This document shows, one piece after another, positions 10,798 to 50,558 of a stretch of 64,000 nt of DNA (positions are counted from its first letter, which is position 1; each line of letters opens with the position of its first letter). The translations under genes were made by a program, and so were the position numbers. This DNA comes from Conexibacter sp. SYSU D00693 (GTDB lineage: Bacteria > Actinomycetota > Thermoleophilia > Solirubrobacterales > Solirubrobacteraceae). The stretch spans positions 1,116,001 to 1,180,000 of the forward strand of contig NZ_CP070950.1 of NCBI RefSeq assembly GCF_017084525.1, read 5' to 3'. The notes under the pieces were generated by a model. It was not told the origin of the DNA. It did not search any database and worked only from the letters and a program-made list of their open reading frames with translations.

Positions 10798-12135
10798 CTA
10801 GCGCTTGGCTCGCGAGTGCCTGCGGTTGGCGATCGACCCGCGGAGCTTCTCGCAGTTGCGGATCTCGTCCCGGAAGTCGGCCACGACCAGGTCGATGCCC
10901 GGGCCGCAGTCGATCCGGTCGCGTCCGCCTCCGACGGCCTTGATCACGTCGTTGCCCGACCCACCGCGCAGGACGTCGGGGTCGAAGCCGCCGTTGAGCC
11001 GGTCGTTGCCGGGGCCGCCGTCGAGGCGGTCCTTGCCGCGGCCGCCCTCGAGCTGATCGTGGCCCTCCTCGCCCAGCACGAGGTCCTTGCCCGTGCGGCC
11101 GTAGAGCGCGTCGTTGCCCACGCCCCCGGCGAGCATGTCGTTGCCGGCCTCGCCCTCGAGGTGGTCGTCGCCGCTTCGGCCGAAGAGCTTGTCGTTGCCG
11201 TCCTTGCCGAGCAGGAGGTCGGCGTCGGGCAGGACGCCGCGCGGCGCGTCGACGCCCTCGAGGACGTCGTCGCCCGGCGTGCCGGACTGCTTGAGCTGGA
11301 CGGCCTGGCCGATCGAGCCCGCCTCGGCGCGCTCCTTGCCGCCCAGGACGAAGCCCGCGACCTCGGGCGGCGGCAGCGCCGGCGCCAGGTGCAGGTCGGT
11401 GACGTGGCGCTCGCAGTTGACGGGCTGCTCGGCGGCGCCGTAGAGCACGTCGTCGCCGTCGCCGCAGTCGACGAAGCCCAGCGGGACGGCCGAGCGGATG
11501 ACGTCGTCGCCGGGGCCGCCCAGGATGTGGTCGCGCTTGGCGTCGTAGCCGAGCTCGGACCGCGGGTCGTCCACGACGATCGTGTCGTTGCCGTCGCCGC
11601 CCTCGACGATGTCGGCGCCCTCGCCCCCGTTCAGCCAGTCCTGCCCCGGGCCGCCCAGCAGCCGGTCGCTGCCCGACCCGCCGAGCAGGACGTCGTCGCC
11701 CTCGCCGCCGTTGACCAGGCGGTCGCTGCCGCGGTTGCCGTCGAGGTAGTCGTCGCCCTGGCCGCCGTCGAGCAGGAGGTCGTTGCCGAAGGCCGACTCG
11801 ACGATGAAGTCGCTGCCGGGGCCGCCGTAGACGACGTCGTCGCCGTCGCCGCCGTCGAGGATGTCGCCGCCGTGCTCGCCCTCGAGGCGGTCGTTGCCGC
11901 TGCCACCGTCGAGCGTGTCGTCGCCGAAGCCGCCCTCGACGCGGTCGTTGGCCGAGCCGCCGAGGAGGTCGTCGTCGGCCCCCACGCCGATGACGCGGTC
12001 GGCGCCGAAGCCACCGACGAGGCGGTCGGGCCCGTCGGTGCCGCGCAGGACCTGCCCGTAGTCGGCCCCCGCGGAGACCGCGCAGACGGAGACCGTCGCG
12101 AGCACCGCAGCCACCGTGCCGACGACCCGCCGCAT
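10798..12135 (-). CDS. secreted RTX-type calcium-binding repeat protein
   Basis: A 445-residue protein. The first 24 residues form a signal peptide (MRRVV..., a hydrophobic Ala/Val core, then SAGAD). Nearly all the rest is nonapeptide repeats of the GGxGxDxLx type (for example GGSGNDRLEG, GGPGNDRLNGG). I count more than 20, in two blocks separated by a linker (about 250-300). Such repeats bind Ca2+ and fold as a parallel beta-roll outside the cell. No enzymatic domain is visible, so this may be a structural or adhesive surface protein. I took ATG 12135 for its signal peptide. An upstream in-frame start at 12240 would bury it. Confidence 0.85.
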   Translation of the reverse strand: MRRVVGTVAAVLATVSVCAVSAGADYGQVLRGTDGPDRLVGGFGADRVIGVGADDDLLGGSANDRVEGGFGDDTLDGGSGNDRLEGEHGGDILDGGDGDDVVYGGPGSDFIVESAFGNDLLLDGGQGDDYLDGNRGSDRLVNGGEGDDVLLGGSGSDRLLGGPGQDWLNGGEGADIVEGGDGNDTIVVDDPRSELGYDAKRDHILGGPGDDVIRSAVPLGFVDCGDGDDVLYGAAEQPVNCERHVTDLHLAPALPPPEVAGFVLGGKERAEAGSIGQAVQLKQSGTPGDDVLEGVDAPRGVLPDADLLLGKDGNDKLFGRSGDDHLEGEAGNDMLAGGVGNDALYGRTGKDLVLGEEGHDQLEGGRGKDRLDGGPGNDRLNGGFDPDVLRGGSGNDVIKAVGGGRDRIDCGPGIDLVVADFRDEIRNCEKLRGSIANRRHSRAKR

Positions 12136-12271: not shown

Positions 12272-12733
12272 GTGGGATGGATCGGTCAGCGAGCGCTGCG
12301 CCCCCCGGTGCGCGCGGCCGGCGGGATGGTCGCCCTGGGCCTCGTCCTGAGCGCCTGCGCCGCCGACGACCAGGCCGGTAGGACGGGCGGCACCGGCGCC
12401 ATCGCCGGCACCCAGACCGCCGTCCTGCCCACCGCCCCCACCCGCGAGGACGCCGCCCGCCGCGTCGCGCGCCGCTACGTGCGCGCCCTGCGCCGCGGCG
12501 ACGCCTCCGACGTGTGCGCCACGAGCTCCCGCGCCGCCCGCGGCAAGGCCGGCGGCCCGTGCGACCTGCGCCGGATGGAGCCCCTCACCGGCCCCGTCCC
12601 GAAGGTCGGCGTCCCGCAGGTCGACGGCCGCACCGCCTACGTCGCGGTCGACCGTGGCGCGGCCCCGATGCTCCGGCTCACGTTGGTGCGTGAGCAGGGG
12701 CGGTGGGGCGTGGACGCGGTGCTAGGGCGGTAG
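12272..12733 (+). CDS. small lipoprotein, function unknown
   Basis: A 153-residue protein from GTG 12272. Arginines at the N-terminus are followed by a hydrophobic stretch (MVALGLVL) and the lipobox LSAC (Cys about 29), so it should be lipid-modified and anchored on the outer face of the membrane. The mature part has a Thr/Pro-rich linker, then REDAARRVARRYVRALRRGD and one Cys pair. The layout is reminiscent of NTF2-like lipoprotein domains, but I cannot assign a family. It is divergent from the RTX gene. The stop is followed directly by the repeat-rich region at 12734. Confidence 0.7.
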   Translation: MGWIGQRALRPPVRAAGGMVALGLVLSACAADDQAGRTGGTGAIAGTQTAVLPTAPTREDAARRVARRYVRALRRGDASDVCATSSRAARGKAGGPCDLRRMEPLTGPVPKVGVPQVDGRTAYVAVDRGAAPMLRLTLVREQGRWGVDAVLGR

Positions 12734-12782
12734 GGCGTCCTCGGGCGCTGCGGCTGCGGCTGCGGCTGCGGCTAGCGCGGTT

Positions 12783-13114
12783 GGCGTCCCGCTCGGGCGT
12801 CGTCCGGGTTCGACGCGTTCGCTGTTCGGCACTGAGGGCGTCGCCGCCCGCGGTCGCGTCCTCCGCGGGCGGTCGTGTGGGTTCGAGCGTCGTGACCCTG
12901 TCGATTCCGGCGTGGGACGCCGGGATCGACAGGGTCACGATGGCGCGCGCTCCAACTGCGGACCCGCTCGCAGTTCGTCGCGCCTCGTGTGACGATCCAT
13001 CGTTGGCAGCAGAGCCTCAACGACACGCGCACCACCACGAACGCCGGCCGGTCCCTCTCTCTCGGTGAAGACCAGCGAGCGCGCCGCACCCAGCGGCCGC
13101 CCGAGCGGGACGCC
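12783..13114. mobile_element. 332-bp MITE-like palindromic element with 17-bp terminal inverted repeats (family copy a)
   Basis: The sequence GGCGTCCCGCTCGGGCG at 12783-12799 recurs perfectly inverted at 13098-13114. The right copy ends on the first base of the response regulator's stop codon. Between the ends lie a near-perfect 21-bp-arm hairpin (12892-12938) and a second 7-bp stem (AACTGCG...CGCAGTT). No gene is plausible here. Just left of the element (12747-12770) is a (GCTGCG)4 run, and a TIR-like GGCGTCCTCGGGCG directly follows the lipoprotein stop at 12734. Parts of the element recur at 33.3-33.9 kb and 49.0 kb. Calling it mobile is inference. I see no target-site duplication. Confidence 0.6.
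12892..12938. repeat. conserved core hairpin of the repeat family, copy a
   Basis: The 21-bp arms GTGACCCTGTCGATTCCGGCG (12892-12912) and 12918-12938 pair with one mismatch around the 5-nt loop TGGGA. The same left arm occurs at 33470, 33783 and 49085. It could act as a bidirectional terminator between the convergent genes on either side. Confidence 0.8.
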
Positions 13115-13776
13115 TACGACGCCGCGCCGCCGCCCGACCCGAGGAACCGCAGGACCGCCAGCACGCGCCGGTGGTCCTCCACGGTCGGCGGGAGGTCGAG
13201 CTTCGAGAAGATCGAGGTGACGTGCTTCTCGACCGCGCGCTCGGTGACGACGAGCGTCTCGGCGATCGCGTGGTTGGACTTGCCCTCGGCCATGAGGCCC
13301 AGGACCTCACGCTCTCGCGGGGAGAGGACGTCGAGCGGGTCCTCGCGGCGGCGGCGGCCCAGGAGGCGGGCGACGACCTCGGGGTCCAGGGCGCTGCCGC
13401 CCTCGGCGACGCGCTTGACGGCCTCCACGAAGCGGTCGACGTCGCCGACGCGGTCCTTGAGGAGGTAGCCGATGCCGGAGGCGTCGTCGGAGAGGAGCTC
13501 CATGGCCGAGGACTCCTCGATGTAGGCGCTCAGGACGAGCACGCCGACGCCGGGGTGGCGCTCGCGCAGCTCGAGGGCGGCCTTGAGGCCCTCGTCGGTC
13601 TGGGTCGGCGGCATGCGAACGTCGACGACCGCGACGTCGGGCTTGTGGGCGCCCACCTTGCGCAGGAGGTCCTCGGCGTCGCCCGCCTGGGCGACGACCT
13701 CCATCCCCTGCTCCTCGAGCAGGCGCGCGAGCCCCTCGCGCAGCAGCACAGAATCATCAGCGAGAACGACGCGCAT
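13114..13776 (-). CDS. NarL/LuxR-family response regulator
   Basis: A 220-residue protein with a receiver domain (1-120) and a LuxR-type helix-turn-helix (about 145-205). The receiver has paired acidic residues in VVLADDS, the phospho-acceptor Asp in VAVVDVRMP and the conserved Lys in YLLKD. The DNA-binding domain shows LSPREREVLGLMAEGKSN and AVEKHV. I chose ATG 13776. An upstream in-frame start (13800) only adds METGETG-like residues. It directly follows the histidine kinase gene and is its likely output regulator. It ends inside the right terminal repeat of the 332-bp element. Confidence 0.92.
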   Translation of the reverse strand: MRVVLADDSVLLREGLARLLEEQGMEVVAQAGDAEDLLRKVGAHKPDVAVVDVRMPPTQTDEGLKAALELRERHPGVGVLVLSAYIEESSAMELLSDDASGIGYLLKDRVGDVDRFVEAVKRVAEGGSALDPEVVARLLGRRRREDPLDVLSPREREVLGLMAEGKSNHAIAETLVVTERAVEKHVTSIFSKLDLPPTVEDHRRVLAVLRFLGSGGGAAS

Positions 13777-32294: not shown

Positions 32295-33278
32295 GTGGAC
32301 CTCGACCTCCTCCAGCGCACGCTCGACGAGCTGGGCCAGCCGCGCTTCCGCGCCAAGCAGGTGTGGGAGTGGGCCGCCCGCGGCGCCGCGGGCTACGACG
32401 CCATGACCAACGTCCCGGCCGCGCTGCGCGAGGAGCTCGCCGCGCGCGTGCCGTTCTCGACGCTCGAGGTCGAGCGCGAGGCGCTGGCCAAGGACGGGAC
32501 GCTCAAGGTCCTGTTCCGCACCGCCGACGGTCGCCCGATCGAGGCCGTGCTCATGCGCTACCGCGACGGCCGGCGCTCGATCTGCGTCTCCTCGCAGTCC
32601 GGCTGCCCCCTGACCTGCACCTTCTGCGCGACGGGGACGATGAAGTTCGGCCGCAACCTCACGGCGAGCGAGGTCCTCGACCAGGTCCTGCACTTCCGCC
32701 GCATCGAGCCGGTCGACCACCTCGTCTTCATGGGCATGGGCGAGCCGCTCATGAACCTCGACCACGTCCTGGCCGCCGTCGAGCGGCTGCCGGACGTCGG
32801 CATCACGAACCGCCGCACGGGCATCAGCACCGTCGGCTGGGTCCCGGGCATCGACCGCCTCGCCGCGTCGCCCTTCCCCGTCCGCCTGGCCCTCTCGCTC
32901 CACGCGCCCGAGGACGCCCTGCGCTCCCAGATCATGCCGGTGAACGACCGGTACTCGATCGAGGAGGTCCTCGCCGCCTGCGAGCGCTTCTACGAGGCCA
33001 AGCGCCGCCAGGTCTTCGTGGAGTACGTGATGCTCAAGGGCGTCAACGACCACCACGCCCACGCGGTCGGCCTCGCCCAGCTCCTCGACCCGCGGATCTA
33101 CAAGCTCAACCTCATCCCGTACAACCCGACGGGCTCCTACGACGGCTCGTCGCGCGACGCGATCGCCGCGTTCCGCGCGGTGCTCGAGGAGCACGGGCTC
33201 ACCGCCACGGTGCGGTTGACGCGCGGGCAGGACATCGACGCCGCGTGCGGGCAGCTGGCGGCGAAGGCGCCGGCGTAG
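32295..33278 (+). CDS. rlmN: dual-specificity 23S rRNA m2A2503 / tRNA m2A37 methyltransferase
   Basis: A 327-residue radical-SAM enzyme. The [4Fe-4S] motif CxxxCxxC appears as GCPLTCTFCATG (about 103-114). FMGMGEPLMN binds SAM. An N-terminal helical RNA-binding domain (about 1-70) is present, and LKGVNDHHAHA and NLIPYNP are RlmN signatures. The C-terminal part lies where the second catalytic Cys is expected (DIDAACGQL). The start is GTG 32295. TACGAT at 32281-32286 is a good -10 only 8 bp before it, so the mRNA may be leaderless. A repeat region begins right after the stop. Confidence 0.93.
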   Translation: MDLDLLQRTLDELGQPRFRAKQVWEWAARGAAGYDAMTNVPAALREELAARVPFSTLEVEREALAKDGTLKVLFRTADGRPIEAVLMRYRDGRRSICVSSQSGCPLTCTFCATGTMKFGRNLTASEVLDQVLHFRRIEPVDHLVFMGMGEPLMNLDHVLAAVERLPDVGITNRRTGISTVGWVPGIDRLAASPFPVRLALSLHAPEDALRSQIMPVNDRYSIEEVLAACERFYEAKRRQVFVEYVMLKGVNDHHAHAVGLAQLLDPRIYKLNLIPYNPTGSYDGSSRDAIAAFRAVLEEHGLTATVRLTRGQDIDAACGQLAAKAPA

Positions 33279-33408
33279 GGCTGCGGCTGCGGCCGGCGCG
33301 TTGCGCTCGGGCGCTTGCGTGGCCTGAGGCGGTCGCTGGTCAGCAGCGAGGAGGGGGAGCACGGCGCGGCCGCGTCCTCCGCGGGCGGTCGTGCGGGTTC
33401 GAGCGCGG

Positions 33409-33453
33409 TGCGTGACGCCTCGTGCATGCATCACATGCACGAGGCGTCACGCA
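33409..33453. repeat. hairpin A, unit 1 (perfect 20-bp arms)
   Basis: The left arm TGCGTGACGCCTCGTGCATG and its exact complement at 33434-33453 flank the 5-nt loop CATCA. Hairpin A is absent from copies a and d, where the flanking element sequence runs on without it. It therefore looks like a nested insertion. Confidence 0.9.
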
Positions 33454-33469
33454 GGACGACCACGCTCCC

Positions 33470-33514
33470 TGACCCTGTCGATTCCGGTCTGGCACGCCGG
33501 AGATGACAGGGTCA
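33470..33514. repeat. core hairpin B, unit 1
   Basis: TGACCCTGTC and GACAGGGTCA form a 10-bp outer stem. After a symmetric 3-nt internal loop (GAT opposite GAT), TCCGG and CCGGA form an inner stem. Copy a has the same left arm but a nearly unbroken stem. Confidence 0.85.
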
Positions 33515-33721
33515 CGGTCGATCGGGGCCGGATGGACCGCCCGCACGCCTCGCGCACCACCGCAACCGCCGGCTCCCTGCCCTCCCTCACTGCCCAACAG
33601 CGACGAACCCGACCTCCACCCGCGCGTCTGCGCGAGCGCGCGGCGGCGGCTGGTCGGCACCGAGGAGGGGGGCACGTCGCGTCCGCGTCCTCCGCGGGCG
33701 GTCGTGCGGGTTCGAGCGCGG

Positions 33722-33766
33722 TGCGTGACGCCTCGTGCATGCATCACATGCACGAGGCGTCACGCA
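33722..33766. repeat. hairpin A, unit 2
   Basis: Identical to the hairpin at 33409-33453, with 20-bp perfect arms and the loop CATCA. Confidence 0.9.
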
Positions 33767-33782
33767 GGACGACCACGCTCCC

Positions 33783-33827
33783 TGACCCTGTCGATTCCGG
33801 TCTGGCACGCCGGAGATGACAGGGTCA
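33783..33827. repeat. core hairpin B, unit 2
   Basis: Identical to the hairpin at 33470-33514, with the same 10-bp outer stem, GAT/GAT internal loop and 5-bp inner stem. Confidence 0.85.
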
Positions 33828-34003
33828 CGGTCGATCGGGGCCGGATGGACCGCCCGCACGCCTCGCGCACCACCGCAACCGCCGGCTCCCTGCCCTCCCT
33901 CACTGCCCGACAGCGACGAACCCGACCTCCACCCGCGGCGGGACGGCGCTCACCCACGGCCGCGCCCGGCCGGGGCTCGCCCCGACGGCGCCGCGGGAGG
34001 CCT

Positions 34004-35053
34004 CTACCGCGTCGTCGCGAAGTGCTGCTCCTGCTCCTCGGCCACCGGGGGCAGCTCGTCGGGCAGGTCCCCGCCCGGGAACTGCTGCCAGGCGTGCTTG
34101 CCGCGGCGCTTGCGCAGCCAGTAGTCGACGCGCCCGTGGTTGTTCATCACGTGCCAGGCGGCGATGTGGGTCGAGATGCTCATCGCCGGGATCCAGAAGC
34201 GGTCGGCGAGCTCGTCGAGCGGGGCGACGGAGCCGGGCGTGACCTCGGCGGCGACGTGGCCGGCGCCCTCGGCGAGGGTGCGGCGCGCCAGGACGGTGCC
34301 GTCGGCGGCGCAGATCTGGGTGTCGCCGAGCGACTGCGTCCTCCACGGGATGAACGGCGCCGCGGGGAAGACGGCGTCGACGGGCCCGACGTGGGCGGCG
34401 TAGACGACCGGGGCACCGACGAGGCGGGCGACCTGGGCGGGCAGCTCGCGGTTCTGGCGGACCCAGAGGTCGTGCTCGCGCGCCGCCCACTGCTTGAGGC
34501 CGGGCACCTGCCAGTTGCTCGGGAACGACGGCCAGCACATGCCGCCGAGGACGAGGTCGACGCCGCGCAGGCGCTTGGCCGTCCGGTGGCGGCCCCACTC
34601 CCAGCCGGAGGCCAGGCCGACGTCGAGGCCGAGCGCGCGGCAGTGGACCTTGCCGTCGTCGTCGCCGCCGCGGTAGTAGTGGTTCTCCCACGCCGACGGG
34701 ATGTCCTTGTCGTGCAGGTGCGCGCCGCCGTCGGGCTCGGCCATGACGTACGTGCCGTAGGCGTCGTCGCCCCGCCGGGCGAGGAAGCCGCCGCAGACGA
34801 CGACGTCGAGCTCGCGCGCCAGCCGCGTGAGCAGCTGGAAGGGCGCGCCGTCGACCGGGCGCGTCACGTCGGCCATCCTCGGGCTGTAGACGTTGGGCGA
34901 GGTCATCGCCTCGGGGACGACCACGACGTCCGGGCCGTGCTCGCGATGGGCGTCGCGGACGAGGTCCTCGATGCGCTCGAGGTTCGCCTCCACCGCGCCG
35001 ACCTCGAGCTGGGCCTGGACGGCCGCGACGACGACCGGCTTGCGCGGGCTCAC
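34004..35053 (-). CDS. nitrilase-superfamily (carbon-nitrogen hydrolase fold) protein, usual catalytic Cys replaced
   Basis: A 349-residue protein from GTG 35053. VVVPEAMTSP supplies the catalytic Glu and HLHDKDIP the catalytic Lys. At the usual nucleophile (ICWE/ICYD-type motif) the sequence reads GLASGWEWGR, with Gly where Cys is expected by aligning the WE. A Cys occurs about 23 residues later in GGMCWPSFP. Either it uses a different nucleophile or it is not an amidase. The start overlaps the FAD oxidoreductase stop (GTGA), so the two are co-expressed. Substrate unknown. Confidence 0.75.
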   Translation of the reverse strand: MSPRKPVVVAAVQAQLEVGAVEANLERIEDLVRDAHREHGPDVVVVPEAMTSPNVYSPRMADVTRPVDGAPFQLLTRLARELDVVVCGGFLARRGDDAYGTYVMAEPDGGAHLHDKDIPSAWENHYYRGGDDDGKVHCRALGLDVGLASGWEWGRHRTAKRLRGVDLVLGGMCWPSFPSNWQVPGLKQWAAREHDLWVRQNRELPAQVARLVGAPVVYAAHVGPVDAVFPAAPFIPWRTQSLGDTQICAADGTVLARRTLAEGAGHVAAEVTPGSVAPLDELADRFWIPAMSISTHIAAWHVMNNHGRVDYWLRKRRGKHAWQQFPGGDLPDELPPVAEEQEQHFATTR

Positions 35054-39922: not shown

Positions 39923-41395
39923 TCAGCGCGGGCGCACGACGTACACCGCGCCCGAGTTGCGCCCCGTGGTGTCCGCGTAGCCCGTGCCCGTGAGCACCTC
40001 GGCCCGCTTGTCGCCGTCCACGTCGGCGACCTCGAGCCCGTAGCCGCTCTGGTCCTGCCGGCGACCGCCGAGGATGCGCGTCGCCCCGGGCGGCAGCAGC
40101 CGCGCGTCGAGGCGCTCGCCGGGCAGCGGCGCCGGCACGACGTACGTCGTCCCCGCGTCCGGCCGGCCCTTCGTCCCCGCCAGGAACGCCCCGACCACCA
40201 GGTCGGGCCCCCCGCCGCCCCCCCGGCCGCCGCGGGCGCCCCGCCCCCCCCCCGGGCGCCCCCCCGCCGCCGCGCCGACCACCACACCGGCGCGGTCGGC
40301 GGGCAGCGGGAACGGCACGTCCGAGAAGTCCTTGGTCAGCCGCAGCACCCAGACCGCACCGACCCGGCGGCCGCGGACGCTCCCGGCGACCGGGTCGCTG
40401 ATCGCGAGGTCGACCACGCCGTCGCCGTCCACGTCGCCCACGCCCGCCAGGACGTTGCCGAAGCCGCTGGCCGGCCGCGAGGTCGCGCCGATGAGCTGGA
40501 CGCCCGCCTCCTGGCCGTCCTCGGCGCCGAGCACGCCGCCGGTGCGCCGGCCGCGGATGAGGTGGACGAGGTTGTCGCCGCCCAGGGCGATCTCGTCCAG
40601 CCCGTCGCCGTCGACGTCGCCCACCGCGGTCATGCCGCCGCCCGAGGCCAGGCCGAAGGAGCTGCCGTAGTCGATCTGGAGCCCGTCGGCGGGCGTGAAG
40701 GCGTGGAGGTCGAGCGCGCGCGGCCAGGACCGGCGGCCGAAGACGACCCACGCCCCCGTCTCCTCGTCGCCCAGCAGGAGGTCGGCGATCGCGTCGCCGT
40801 TGACGTCACCCGCGGCCGTGACCTGCCCCAGGAACGTCTCGTCGCCCTCGCCGAGGATCCGCACGATGCCCTTCGGCGGCCGGCGCAGGTCGATCCGCGA
40901 GCGCCCCGCGGTCCCGAGCACGAGGTAGGCGACACCCGCCTTGTCGCGGTCTCCCGCGTCGGCGCTGTCGGCCACCGCCACCCAGTCGGCGCGCCCGTCG
41001 GCGTTGACGTCGCCGACGCCCGCCACCGACGCGCCCAGGCGGTCGCCGCGCTGCGCGCCCTCGAGGCGCACGACGTCGCGGGCCCGGTCCAGGCGCAGGA
41101 CGCGGTCGCGCCGGCCCTCGACGAGGAAGGCCGCGCCGGCGTCGCGCCGGTCGCGCGGGTCGGCCCCGTAGGCACCGACCACGACCTCGTCGTCGCCGTC
41201 CTTGTCGAGGTCGGCCACGCGGGAGACGCGATCGCCGGCGACCCAGCCCTCCGGCCCGTCCCAGCGGTGGCGCACGTCGGCGCGGTCGCGCAGGTCGAGC
41301 TGCCGCGGCCCCTGGGCCTCGGCGAGCGCGGGCGTCGCCGCGACGAGCGCCAGGGCGGCGGCCACGAGGGCGCGATGGCGGTGCTGGCCGGTCAT
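39923..41395 (-). CDS. secreted FG-GAP/integrin-like beta-propeller protein
   Basis: A 490-residue protein with a signal peptide (about 1-24, MTGQHRHRALVAAALALVA then ALAEAQG). About seven FG-GAP blades carry Ca2+-binding DxDxDGxxD loops (DLDKDGDDEVVVG, DVNADGRADWVAV, DVDGDGLDEIALG, DVDGDGVVDLAIS, DVDGDKRAEVLTG). It probably forms an extracellular propeller that binds proteins or carbohydrates. Residues about 395-415 are nearly pure Gly/Arg, encoded by C runs up to 10 long (40200-40275). That may be low-complexity DNA or a place of hidden indels. I chose ATG 41395 for the signal peptide. Confidence 0.85.
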   Translation of the reverse strand: MTGQHRHRALVAAALALVAATPALAEAQGPRQLDLRDRADVRHRWDGPEGWVAGDRVSRVADLDKDGDDEVVVGAYGADPRDRRDAGAAFLVEGRRDRVLRLDRARDVVRLEGAQRGDRLGASVAGVGDVNADGRADWVAVADSADAGDRDKAGVAYLVLGTAGRSRIDLRRPPKGIVRILGEGDETFLGQVTAAGDVNGDAIADLLLGDEETGAWVVFGRRSWPRALDLHAFTPADGLQIDYGSSFGLASGGGMTAVGDVDGDGLDEIALGGDNLVHLIRGRRTGGVLGAEDGQEAGVQLIGATSRPASGFGNVLAGVGDVDGDGVVDLAISDPVAGSVRGRRVGAVWVLRLTKDFSDVPFPLPADRAGVVVGAAAGGRPGGGRGARGGRGGGGGPDLVVGAFLAGTKGRPDAGTTYVVPAPLPGERLDARLLPPGATRILGGRRQDQSGYGLEVADVDGDKRAEVLTGTGYADTTGRNSGAVYVVRPR

Positions 41396-48012: not shown

Positions 48013-48828
48013 CTAGGGCGTGGTGGGCGCCGTCGGGGCGGCCGGCGTGGTGACGCCAGGCGTGGCCGCCGACTGCGCGTCGGCCTCCGGGTCGGTCTGG
48101 CTGAGCGGGTCCTCCAGGCCCCCGGCGGCGGGCCGCTCGGGGGAGCGCAGGTCGAGGTAGGTCGCGCCGCGCGAGCCCGCGTCGGCCAGCACGCGGGAGG
48201 CCGAGAGCCACTTCGCGGCGAGGCGGTCGGTGCCGCCGAAGCGCAGCGCCGGGCCGTCCTCGAGCTGGAGGGTCAGGCCGGCGGGGCCGAAGAAGGCGCG
48301 CGAGACCTTCGGGCGCAGCTGCGGGGGCGCGGCGGCCAGCGCGCGGATCGCGGCGCCGGCGCGCTGGTCGGTGATGCGGTCGCCGACCGGCGGGGTCTTG
48401 AGCGTCACGACCGCGAGCTCGCGGCGGGCGGCGCCGCGCAGCAGCGTGCCGTCGCCGGCGACGAGCGTCCTCTCGCTGCCCGACTGCACGGCGGCGACGG
48501 GCGTGCGCTCGTGCACGTCGATGCGCAGGCCGTGCGGGAAGTCCGTGGTGACCGTGAGGCCGTGCACCACCGAGTAGGGCTCGACGATCGACCGCAGCGC
48601 GCCCTCGTCGACGTGCAGCGTCGTCATCTCGCGCGCGGCGGCCTTGAGGTCCCGGGAGAGCCGGCCGGCCTCGGGCCCGGTCAGCCCGGTCACCTGCACG
48701 TCCTCCACGGCGACCAGCGACGAGTCGCGGACGACGAGGAACCCGCCGCCGAGGAGCCCGAGGGTCAGCGCGAGGCCGAGGAGCAGGCGGGGCTTGGCGA
48801 TCCGACGCACCGTCTCCCCGTTCGACAC
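48013..48828 (-). CDS. ftsQ: cell division protein FtsQ/DivIB
   Basis: A 271-residue bitopic protein. One membrane helix (about 14-30, LLLGLALTLGLLGGGFLVV) precedes the POTRA domain (about 36-105, VAVEDVQVTGLTG) and the FtsQ beta domain, with ERTPVAAV. The tail (about 240-271) is Pro/Thr/Ala-rich. I chose GTG 48828. The frame remains open upstream through the 45-bp repeats, which would add RRRGQSPASHAGP units and offer further GTG codons. With FtsL/FtsB partners it recruits septal synthases. Confidence 0.88.
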   Translation of the reverse strand: MSNGETVRRIAKPRLLLGLALTLGLLGGGFLVVRDSSLVAVEDVQVTGLTGPEAGRLSRDLKAAAREMTTLHVDEGALRSIVEPYSVVHGLTVTTDFPHGLRIDVHERTPVAAVQSGSERTLVAGDGTLLRGAARRELAVVTLKTPPVGDRITDQRAGAAIRALAAAPPQLRPKVSRAFFGPAGLTLQLEDGPALRFGGTDRLAAKWLSASRVLADAGSRGATYLDLRSPERPAAGGLEDPLSQTDPEADAQSAATPGVTTPAAPTAPTTP

Positions 48829-48840
48829 GCCGCCTGCCGG

Positions 48841-48966
48841 TCCTGCGTGCGAAGCGGGGGACTGTCCCCTTCTTCGCACTACGGGTCCTGCGTGCGAGGC
48901 GGGGGACTGTCCCCTTCTTCGCACTACGGGTGCCGCGTGCGAAGCGGGGGACTGTCCCCTTCATGG
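48841..48966. repeat. three-copy 45-bp tandem array, GGGGACTGTCCCC palindrome type
   Basis: Units begin at 48841, 48886 and 48931. The third is cut after its palindrome. Each contains GGGGACTGTCCCC nested within an outer stem GTGCGAAG...CTTCGCAC (for example 48847-48879). The array sits directly before ftsQ and stays in frame with it on the minus strand because 45 is a multiple of 3. The unit resembles REP-type hairpins dispersed in other genomes. Confidence 0.85.
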
Positions 48967-48973
48967 CGTCCGT

Positions 48974-49131
48974 GCGTCCCGCTCGGGCGTCGGGTCGGGC
49001 TCGGGCGGTGGCTGTCTTGCAGTGAGGAAGCGAGAGGACACGCGATTGCGGGGCTCGCGAGGCGGTCTCGCGGGTTCCAGCGCCGTGACCCTGTCGATTC
49101 CGGCGTCCCAGACCGGGGATGACAGGGTCAC
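48974..49131. repeat. partial copy d of the palindromic element family
   Basis: GCGTCCCGCTCGGGCG at 48974-48989 matches 16 of the 17 bases of the copy a terminal repeat. The segment leads to the core hairpin at 49085-49131, whose left arm GTGACCCTGTCGATTCCGG is identical to copy a and whose right arm matches the 33-kb type. I find no inverted terminal repeat on the right, so the copy may be truncated. 49132-49336 has no gene and no clear repeat that I can see. Confidence 0.7.
49085..49131. repeat. core hairpin, copy d
   Basis: GTGACCCTGTC pairs with GACAGGGTCAC (11 bp). After a 3-nt internal loop on each side, TCCGG faces CCGGG as an inner stem. Confidence 0.8.
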
Positions 49132-49336
49132 GCTCGCTCGGGCCCGAACGGCCGGCTTCAGGGACGGGGACCGCGCTACGCGGCACAACTCCGCGAGGTC
49201 GGCCGCGACCGCCCGCGGCGGGCCACGCAGCGGCCGGCCCCTTCTCCTCCTCGGTGCCGACCGGCGACCGCCCCGCACCACGCCCCCGCGAGAGCGGAGT
49301 TCCACGGCCTGCATCGCCCAGCACCTCGCGGCCTCC

Positions 49337-49473
49337 CGCCCCGACGGGGTCTGTCCCCATCACGGCGGCCGCAGCCCTCCGCGCCCCGACGGGGTCTGTC
49401 CCCATCACGGCGGCCGCAGCCCTTCCCGCCCCGACGGGGCCTGTCCCCACCATGGCGGCCGCAGCCTTCCGCG
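49337..49473. repeat. three-copy 45-bp tandem array, GGGGTCTGTCCCC type, leading into murB
   Basis: Units begin at 49337, 49382 and 49427. Each has CGCCCCGACGGGG, a GGGGTCTGTCCCC-like core and GGCGGCCGCAG. Copies 1 and 2 read CCCCATCACGG where copy 3 reads CCCCACCATGG. That change creates an in-frame ATG (49452) for murB. The sequence is unlike the array at 48841, but the period and copy number are the same. Confidence 0.85.
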
Positions 49474-49499
49474 CCGCCGGCCGCGGCTACGGTGTCCGC

Positions 49500-50554
<1,055 letters not shown>

Positions 50555-50558
<4 letters not shown>

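What the first reader, a model, noticed from the sequence alone, without database searches (positions are those of the whole stretch)
33370..33937. Near-identical 255-bp direct repeat with a 313-bp period
Units 33370-33624 and 33683-33937 differ at one position by my reading, yet identity stops sharply at both ends. The units carry two strong hairpins each and belong to the same family as the 12.8-kb element. This implies very recent tandem duplication or ongoing gene conversion, and predicts copy-number variation.
Basis: seen in the sequence. Interest (0 to 1): 0.65.

Follow-up and report, generated by a model that had tools for sequence, protein, structure and literature searches.

The report
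Homogenised pair of palindromic intergenic repeats
Two nearly identical 255-270-base units sit side by side between two genes that face each other; they belong to an old, species-restricted family of hairpin-rich repeats scattered between genes of this bacterium, and only neighbouring copies are kept identical by local copying, so it is a clear but fairly ordinary example of bacterial repeat evolution.

Summary
The pair fills the gap between rlmN (+) and a carbon-nitrogen hydrolase gene (-), which converge, in a Solirubrobacteraceae genome. Each unit is a complete, old element: inverted outer arms (shared motif GCTGKTCGGCASYGAGGGAGGG) around palindromes A (GTGACGCCTCGTGCATG) and B (GTGACCCTGTCATCTCCGG). 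Genome-wide there are about 38 arm-motif sites (control 0), 19 A palindromes and about 25 B loci; 60 relatives show no match to A or B. Elements with arms lie between convergent genes in 20 of 28 cases (background 14 of 178, p = 8e-13). The closest non-local copies are only about 75-85% alike, so the pair is not a recent transposition. The two left arms resemble arms elsewhere as much as each other, so a single fresh tandem duplication does not explain the pair; local gene conversion or partial duplication does. Four other loci show a similar pattern. Tandem clusters of this kind are known for REPINs, and modular variation for BOX elements; no linked transposase or target duplication was found. 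Copy-number variation could not be tested.

The parts
32295..33278 (+). rlmN-like gene (Radical_SAM + RlmN_N), left convergent neighbour
33293..33369 (+). left arm of unit 1: outer end module (..GCGTTGCGCTCGGGCG..), motif T at 33335-33356
   Evidence: the exact outer boundary is inferred from the alignment of arms
33354..33624 (+). unit 1, 271-nt near-identical tract (255 nt with one mismatch from 33370)
33371..33405 (+). module H (GCGTCCTCCGCGGGCGGTCGTGCGGGTTCGAGC), shared with the 12.8-kb element
33409..33453 (.). palindrome A of unit 1
33467..33517 (.). palindrome B of unit 1
33580..33601 (-). motif T of the right arm of unit 1
33625..33682 (+). spacer: truncated left arm of unit 2, diverged from the left arm of unit 1; motif T at 33649-33670
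33667..33937 (+). unit 2, 271-nt near-identical tract
33722..33766 (.). palindrome A of unit 2
33780..33830 (.). palindrome B of unit 2
33893..33955 (-). right arm of unit 2 (motif T 33893-33914 plus outer end module)
34004..35053 (-). carbon-nitrogen hydrolase gene, right convergent neighbour
12780..13113 (.). single element of the same family (T 12821, H 12856, palindrome B 12890-12940, T 13055) between convergent genes 12326-12733(+) and 13114-13749(-)
49011..49265 (.). third, more decayed member of the family (palindrome B 49087-49129 and arm motifs at 49011, 49131 and 49244 with 6 mismatches) in the gap between 48013-48828(-) and 49452-50558(+)

Best explanation
The locus holds two adjacent copies of a non-coding, hairpin-rich dispersed repeat of the MITE/REP kind: inverted outer arms of roughly 100 nt flank interchangeable palindromes of about 40-50 bp. 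Shown: the family is diverged (hence old), lies mostly downstream of stop codons and above all between convergent genes, and is confined to this species among the genomes held; adjacent copies, unlike dispersed ones, are nearly identical over sharply bounded tracts while their outer arms are not. Inferred: two neighbouring elements (or one that was partly duplicated long ago) were recently made identical by local gene conversion, or by a partial duplication/template switch, helped by palindromes that stall replication or are cut when extruded. Inferred and unproven: the elements are tolerated in, or serve, 3' regions, where the palindromes could stop or protect converging transcripts.
For: Near-identity is local only: unit 2 scores 461 bits at 99%, the next best place in the genome 86 bits at 75%. 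The left arms are no closer to each other than to arms elsewhere, while the adjoining 255 nt have one mismatch. A similar pattern occurs at other loci: L030 (about 76 nt identical, then abrupt divergence), L044 (about 98 nt), L021 (about 66 nt), L039 (about 97% over some 210 nt). Dispersed family: about 38 arm motifs against 0 in the reversed-pattern control, A half-sites almost always in inverted pairs, B. 20 of 28 elements with arms lie in convergent gaps against 14 of 178 background gaps of at least 40 bp, p = 8e-13; only 1 of 28 in divergent gaps. Several stand-alone A palindromes start 9-12 nt after a stop codon. Species restriction. The unit folds far better than shuffles (z = -7.85).
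Against: No reads or sister strains were available, so conversion is inferred from one genome. A partial duplication into an existing array would leave the same trace. The mismatch contrast is modest in base counts (Fisher p about 8e-4 without gaps). Tract edges lie near palindrome edges in about four arrays, but a rough estimate says that is not beyond chance. Left and right arms of one element do not co-vary (permutation p = 0.55), so the arms give no sign of selection as an RNA helix.
Confidence: 0.72

Rival explanations
1. Simple recent tandem duplication of a 313-bp segment by slippage or unequal crossing over; the spacer and left arm then diverged.
For: Tandem, same orientation, 99.6% identical cores; L039 looks like such an event, with about 97% identity through the left arm.
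Against: The left arm and spacer (5 mismatches in 56 plus 16 gap columns) cannot share the age of cores with 1 mismatch in 255, and the unit-1 left arm has closer relatives at other loci than at unit 2.
Confidence: 0.15
2. Two independent recent insertions of a currently active mobile element, the second beside the first.
For: Dispersed family with inverted arms; three Y1-transposase genes are present in the genome.
Against: No other place carries a near-identical copy (next best 75-84%); no target-site duplication in the 11 elements examined; each Y1_Tnp gene is flanked by a different REP sequence, not by A, B or T; the left arms of the two units differ.
Confidence: 0.07
3. Functional bidirectional transcription terminator or 3'-end stabiliser kept identical by selection.
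For: Strong enrichment in convergent gaps and closeness to stop codons; strong hairpins; A arms conserved with variable 5-nt loops.
Against: Selection on hairpins does not explain identity of the non-palindromic right arm, which is only about 75% alike elsewhere; no U-tract follows palindrome A; avoidance of promoter regions alone would give the same distribution.
Confidence: 0.12
4. Assembly artefact (one real unit, duplicated in the assembly).
For: Not checkable without reads.
Against: Four differences between units and a unique 42-58 nt spacer; four other loci show similar local pairs; the genome is one contig.
Confidence: 0.04

Closest known systems
REPIN tandem clusters of Pseudomonas fluorescens SBW25 (PMC3116915)
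   Same: Palindromic intergenic repeats; [quoted passage not shown]
   Different: REPIN types there have a cluster beside a matching RAYT gene; here the three Y1_Tnp genes carry other REPs. Arms and palindromes are longer here, and sequences differ.
BOX elements of Streptococcus pneumoniae (PMC3049150)
   Same: Modular, inverted ends with variable inner modules, over-represented between convergent genes, modules vary in number.
   Different: BOX has TIRs and target-site duplications according to that paper; no duplication seen here; no sequence relation shown.
GTAG/CGTC-tagged REPs (PMC3733652)
   Same: Located mostly between convergent or co-directional genes, often less than 20 bp from the 3' end of the upstream ORF.
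   Different: Those have 5-13 bp stems and an unpaired GTAG or CGTC tag; palindrome A has arms of 16-20 bp and no constant unpaired tag in the listed flanks.
MITEs in general
   Same: Short, non-coding, inverted terminal arms, many copies.
   Different: No transposase with the same ends and no target duplication found.

Membership tests
REPIN / RAYT-associated REP | same palindrome flanks a RAYT (Y1_Tnp) gene in the genome | tested here: not met
   Three Y1_Tnp genes found; their flanks hold GGGGACTGTCCCC, CGGGGTCTGACCCCG and GGAAAGTGCCTGGCACTTTCC repeats, none of A, B or T.
REPIN / RAYT-associated REP | palindromic, intergenic, multi-copy, rare in divergent gaps | tested here: met
GTAG/CGTC-tagged REP | constant unpaired GTAG or CGTC tetranucleotide at one end | tested here: not met
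   Flanks of 19 A palindromes read by eye show no constant unpaired tag.
MITE | inverted terminal arms | tested here: met
   Arms aligned at both ends of about 11 elements.
MITE | target-site duplication | tested here: not met
   No direct repeat at the element edges of 11 elements; edges are fuzzy, so a very short duplication could be missed.
MITE | autonomous element with the same ends | tested here: inconclusive
   No coding gene between paired T motifs in the loci read; no scan for all transposase families was made.
Intrinsic transcription terminator | GC-rich hairpin followed by U-tract | tested here: not met
   No T-run after palindrome A in any copy listed; U-less terminators are not excluded.
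DNA uptake sequence | many single (unpaired) copies genome-wide | tested here: not met
   A half-sites with at most one mismatch are nearly all in inverted pairs.
Structured ncRNA known to Rfam | match at gathering score | tested here: not met
   No match in the window.
BOX element | boxA/boxB/boxC sequence | not tested
   Compared by architecture only.

The most novel reading that the evidence does not exclude
A distinct class of modular 3'-end repeat in Solirubrobacteraceae: interchangeable palindrome cassettes within long inverted arms occupy whole gaps between convergent genes, act as two-way transcription barriers, and change number and content by palindrome-triggered local copying with no transposase; sister species carry unrelated families of similar layout (one such family was seen in the sister genome G001).
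Probability: 0.12. Interest if true: 0.6.

Novelty: new variant of a known kind. Interest (0 to 1): 0.33.

Why it matters
It shows concerted evolution inside single intergenic gaps: dispersed copies drift while neighbouring copies stay identical, with tract borders that can be mapped. That gives marked test loci for palindrome-driven gene conversion in an understudied actinobacterial family, possible strain-typing markers, and a caution that tandem near-identity need not mean a fresh duplication.

Tried and rejected
RAYT mobilisation: rejected, the three Y1_Tnp genes carry other REPs. Uptake sequence: rejected, half-sites are paired. Known RNA family: none. Phage or plasmid origin: no exact A arm in viral contigs, no match in plasmids. 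RNA helix between the arms: no co-variation. Within-palindrome co-variation of the B/C group (8.15 against 5.32 matches) mixes subfamilies and was not used. Target-site duplication: none. Same locus in relatives: L062 (79% RlmN identity) and L064 have no such element after rlmN; for the minus-strand same-genus hits my script read the wrong side, so those were not used. Tract edges at palindrome edges: suggestive only. Literature: no paper on such repeats in Solirubrobacter found.

Full report
What is there. The repeat is real: 33354-33624 and 33667-33937 match at 99% with period 313. The pair fills the 725-bp gap between an rlmN-like gene (32295-33278, +) and a carbon-nitrogen hydrolase gene (34004-35053, -), called with a codon-usage gene finder that I trained on this genome and identified by Pfam. 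The window lies at 1116001-1180000 of a single 4.43-Mb contig. The organism is a member of the Solirubrobacteraceae or near it, judged from the nearest RlmN relatives.

Anatomy of a unit. Each unit has a left arm, module H, palindrome A (33409-33453; 20-bp perfect arms, 5-nt loop), palindrome B (33467-33517) and a right arm that is the inverse of the left. The arms carry the motif GCTGKTCGGCASYGAGGGAGGG and, about 40 nt further out, an end module like GGCGTTCCGCTCGGGCG or GGAGCTCCG. The RNA of one unit folds as a closed multi-branch structure with z = -7.85 against shuffles, but left and right arms of one element are no more complementary to each other than to arms of other elements (permutation p = 0.55), so the arms look like ends of an element and not like a selected RNA helix.

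A dispersed family. A search of the whole genome with one unit gave 80 matches. Counts by pattern: the arm motif 38 sites with at most 3 mismatches, control 0; palindrome A 19 distinct copies in the loci read, always 16-nt core arms and a 5-nt loop, with the loop variable; half-sites of A almost always in inverted pairs; palindrome B at about 25 loci. Other palindromes occupy the same place in other elements. The element at 12.8 kb is a single copy of the family, and a third, more decayed one lies near 49.0-49.3 kb.

Restriction. In 60 relatives there was no match to palindrome A or B, only marginal matches to arm regions. The arm motif with at most 2 mismatches occurs 20 times in this genome and not at all in six same-genus genomes; across the other 139 genomes of the family it occurs 0-2 times each, which is at or near chance level. 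A sister genome (G001) has its own, unrelated repeat family of similar layout in at least five gaps.

Place in the genome. Of 28 gaps with an arm motif, 20 lie between convergent genes, 7 between co-directional and 1 between divergent genes; the background of gaps of 40 bp or more is 14, 99 and 65 (p = 8e-13 for convergent). Palindromes A or B without arms often start 9-12 nt after a stop codon, and three A palindromes (L008, L024, L181) fill convergent gaps of 44-62 bp. Reported REPs and BOX elements show a similar preference (PMC3733652; PMC3049150). The preference fits a role at 3' ends but also mere tolerance away from promoters.

How the pair arose. Three observations matter. First, near-identity is local: the next best place in the genome after the two units scores 86 bits at 75%, so recent transposition is unlikely. 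Second, the sequence just left of the identical tract is an element arm in both units, but these two arms differ by 5 mismatches in 56 and 16 gap columns, and the first is closer to arms at L040, L007 and L178 than to the second. A single 313-bp duplication would have made the arms as alike as the cores. Third, other loci show the same kind of thing: L030, L044 and L021 have identical tracts of about 66-98 nt within diverged surroundings, and L039 about 210 nt at 97%. I therefore favour local gene conversion, or partial duplication by template switching, within an old array. The palindromes are plausible triggers, but that step is inference.

Relation to known systems. The closest parallel is the tandem REPIN cluster of P. 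[quoted passage not shown] By test it is not a RAYT-linked REP, it lacks the unpaired tag of GTAG/CGTC REPs, and no target-site duplication was found. It works like a modular REP, BOX or MITE family without being shown to belong to any of them.

Limits. No reads, no second strain of the species and no metagenome scan were available. My gene calls are mechanical. Loci were gathered by similarity to one unit and to motif T, so counts are lower bounds and lean towards this subfamily. In one search the minus-strand loci were read on the wrong side and were not used.

Noticed in passing
48839-48962 and 49332-49475: Two arrays of 45-bp tandem repeats with GGGGACTGTCCCC / GGTCTGTCCCC cores, like the REPs around the Y1_Tnp gene at L048; a member of the present family lies between them.
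   Followed up: partly
48013-50558: An ftsQ-like gene (-) and a murB-like gene (+) stand back to back across this repeat-filled gap; from general knowledge they are usually co-directional, so a local inversion is possible.
   Followed up: no
10801-12135 (-): 445-aa protein with nine stretches of RTX calcium-binding nonapeptide repeats.
   Followed up: no
L047, L048, L049: Three Y1_Tnp (RAYT-like) genes, each flanked by its own REP type.
   Followed up: partly
L206, L208, L218 (sister genome G001): A different family of about 130-bp imperfect inverted repeats, in both convergent and co-directional gaps.
   Followed up: partly
L034:2016-2110: A palindrome-B copy that falls inside a predicted gene (907-2929); may be a gene-calling error.
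   Followed up: no
40204-40273: Very C-rich 29-bp tandem repeat.
   Followed up: no
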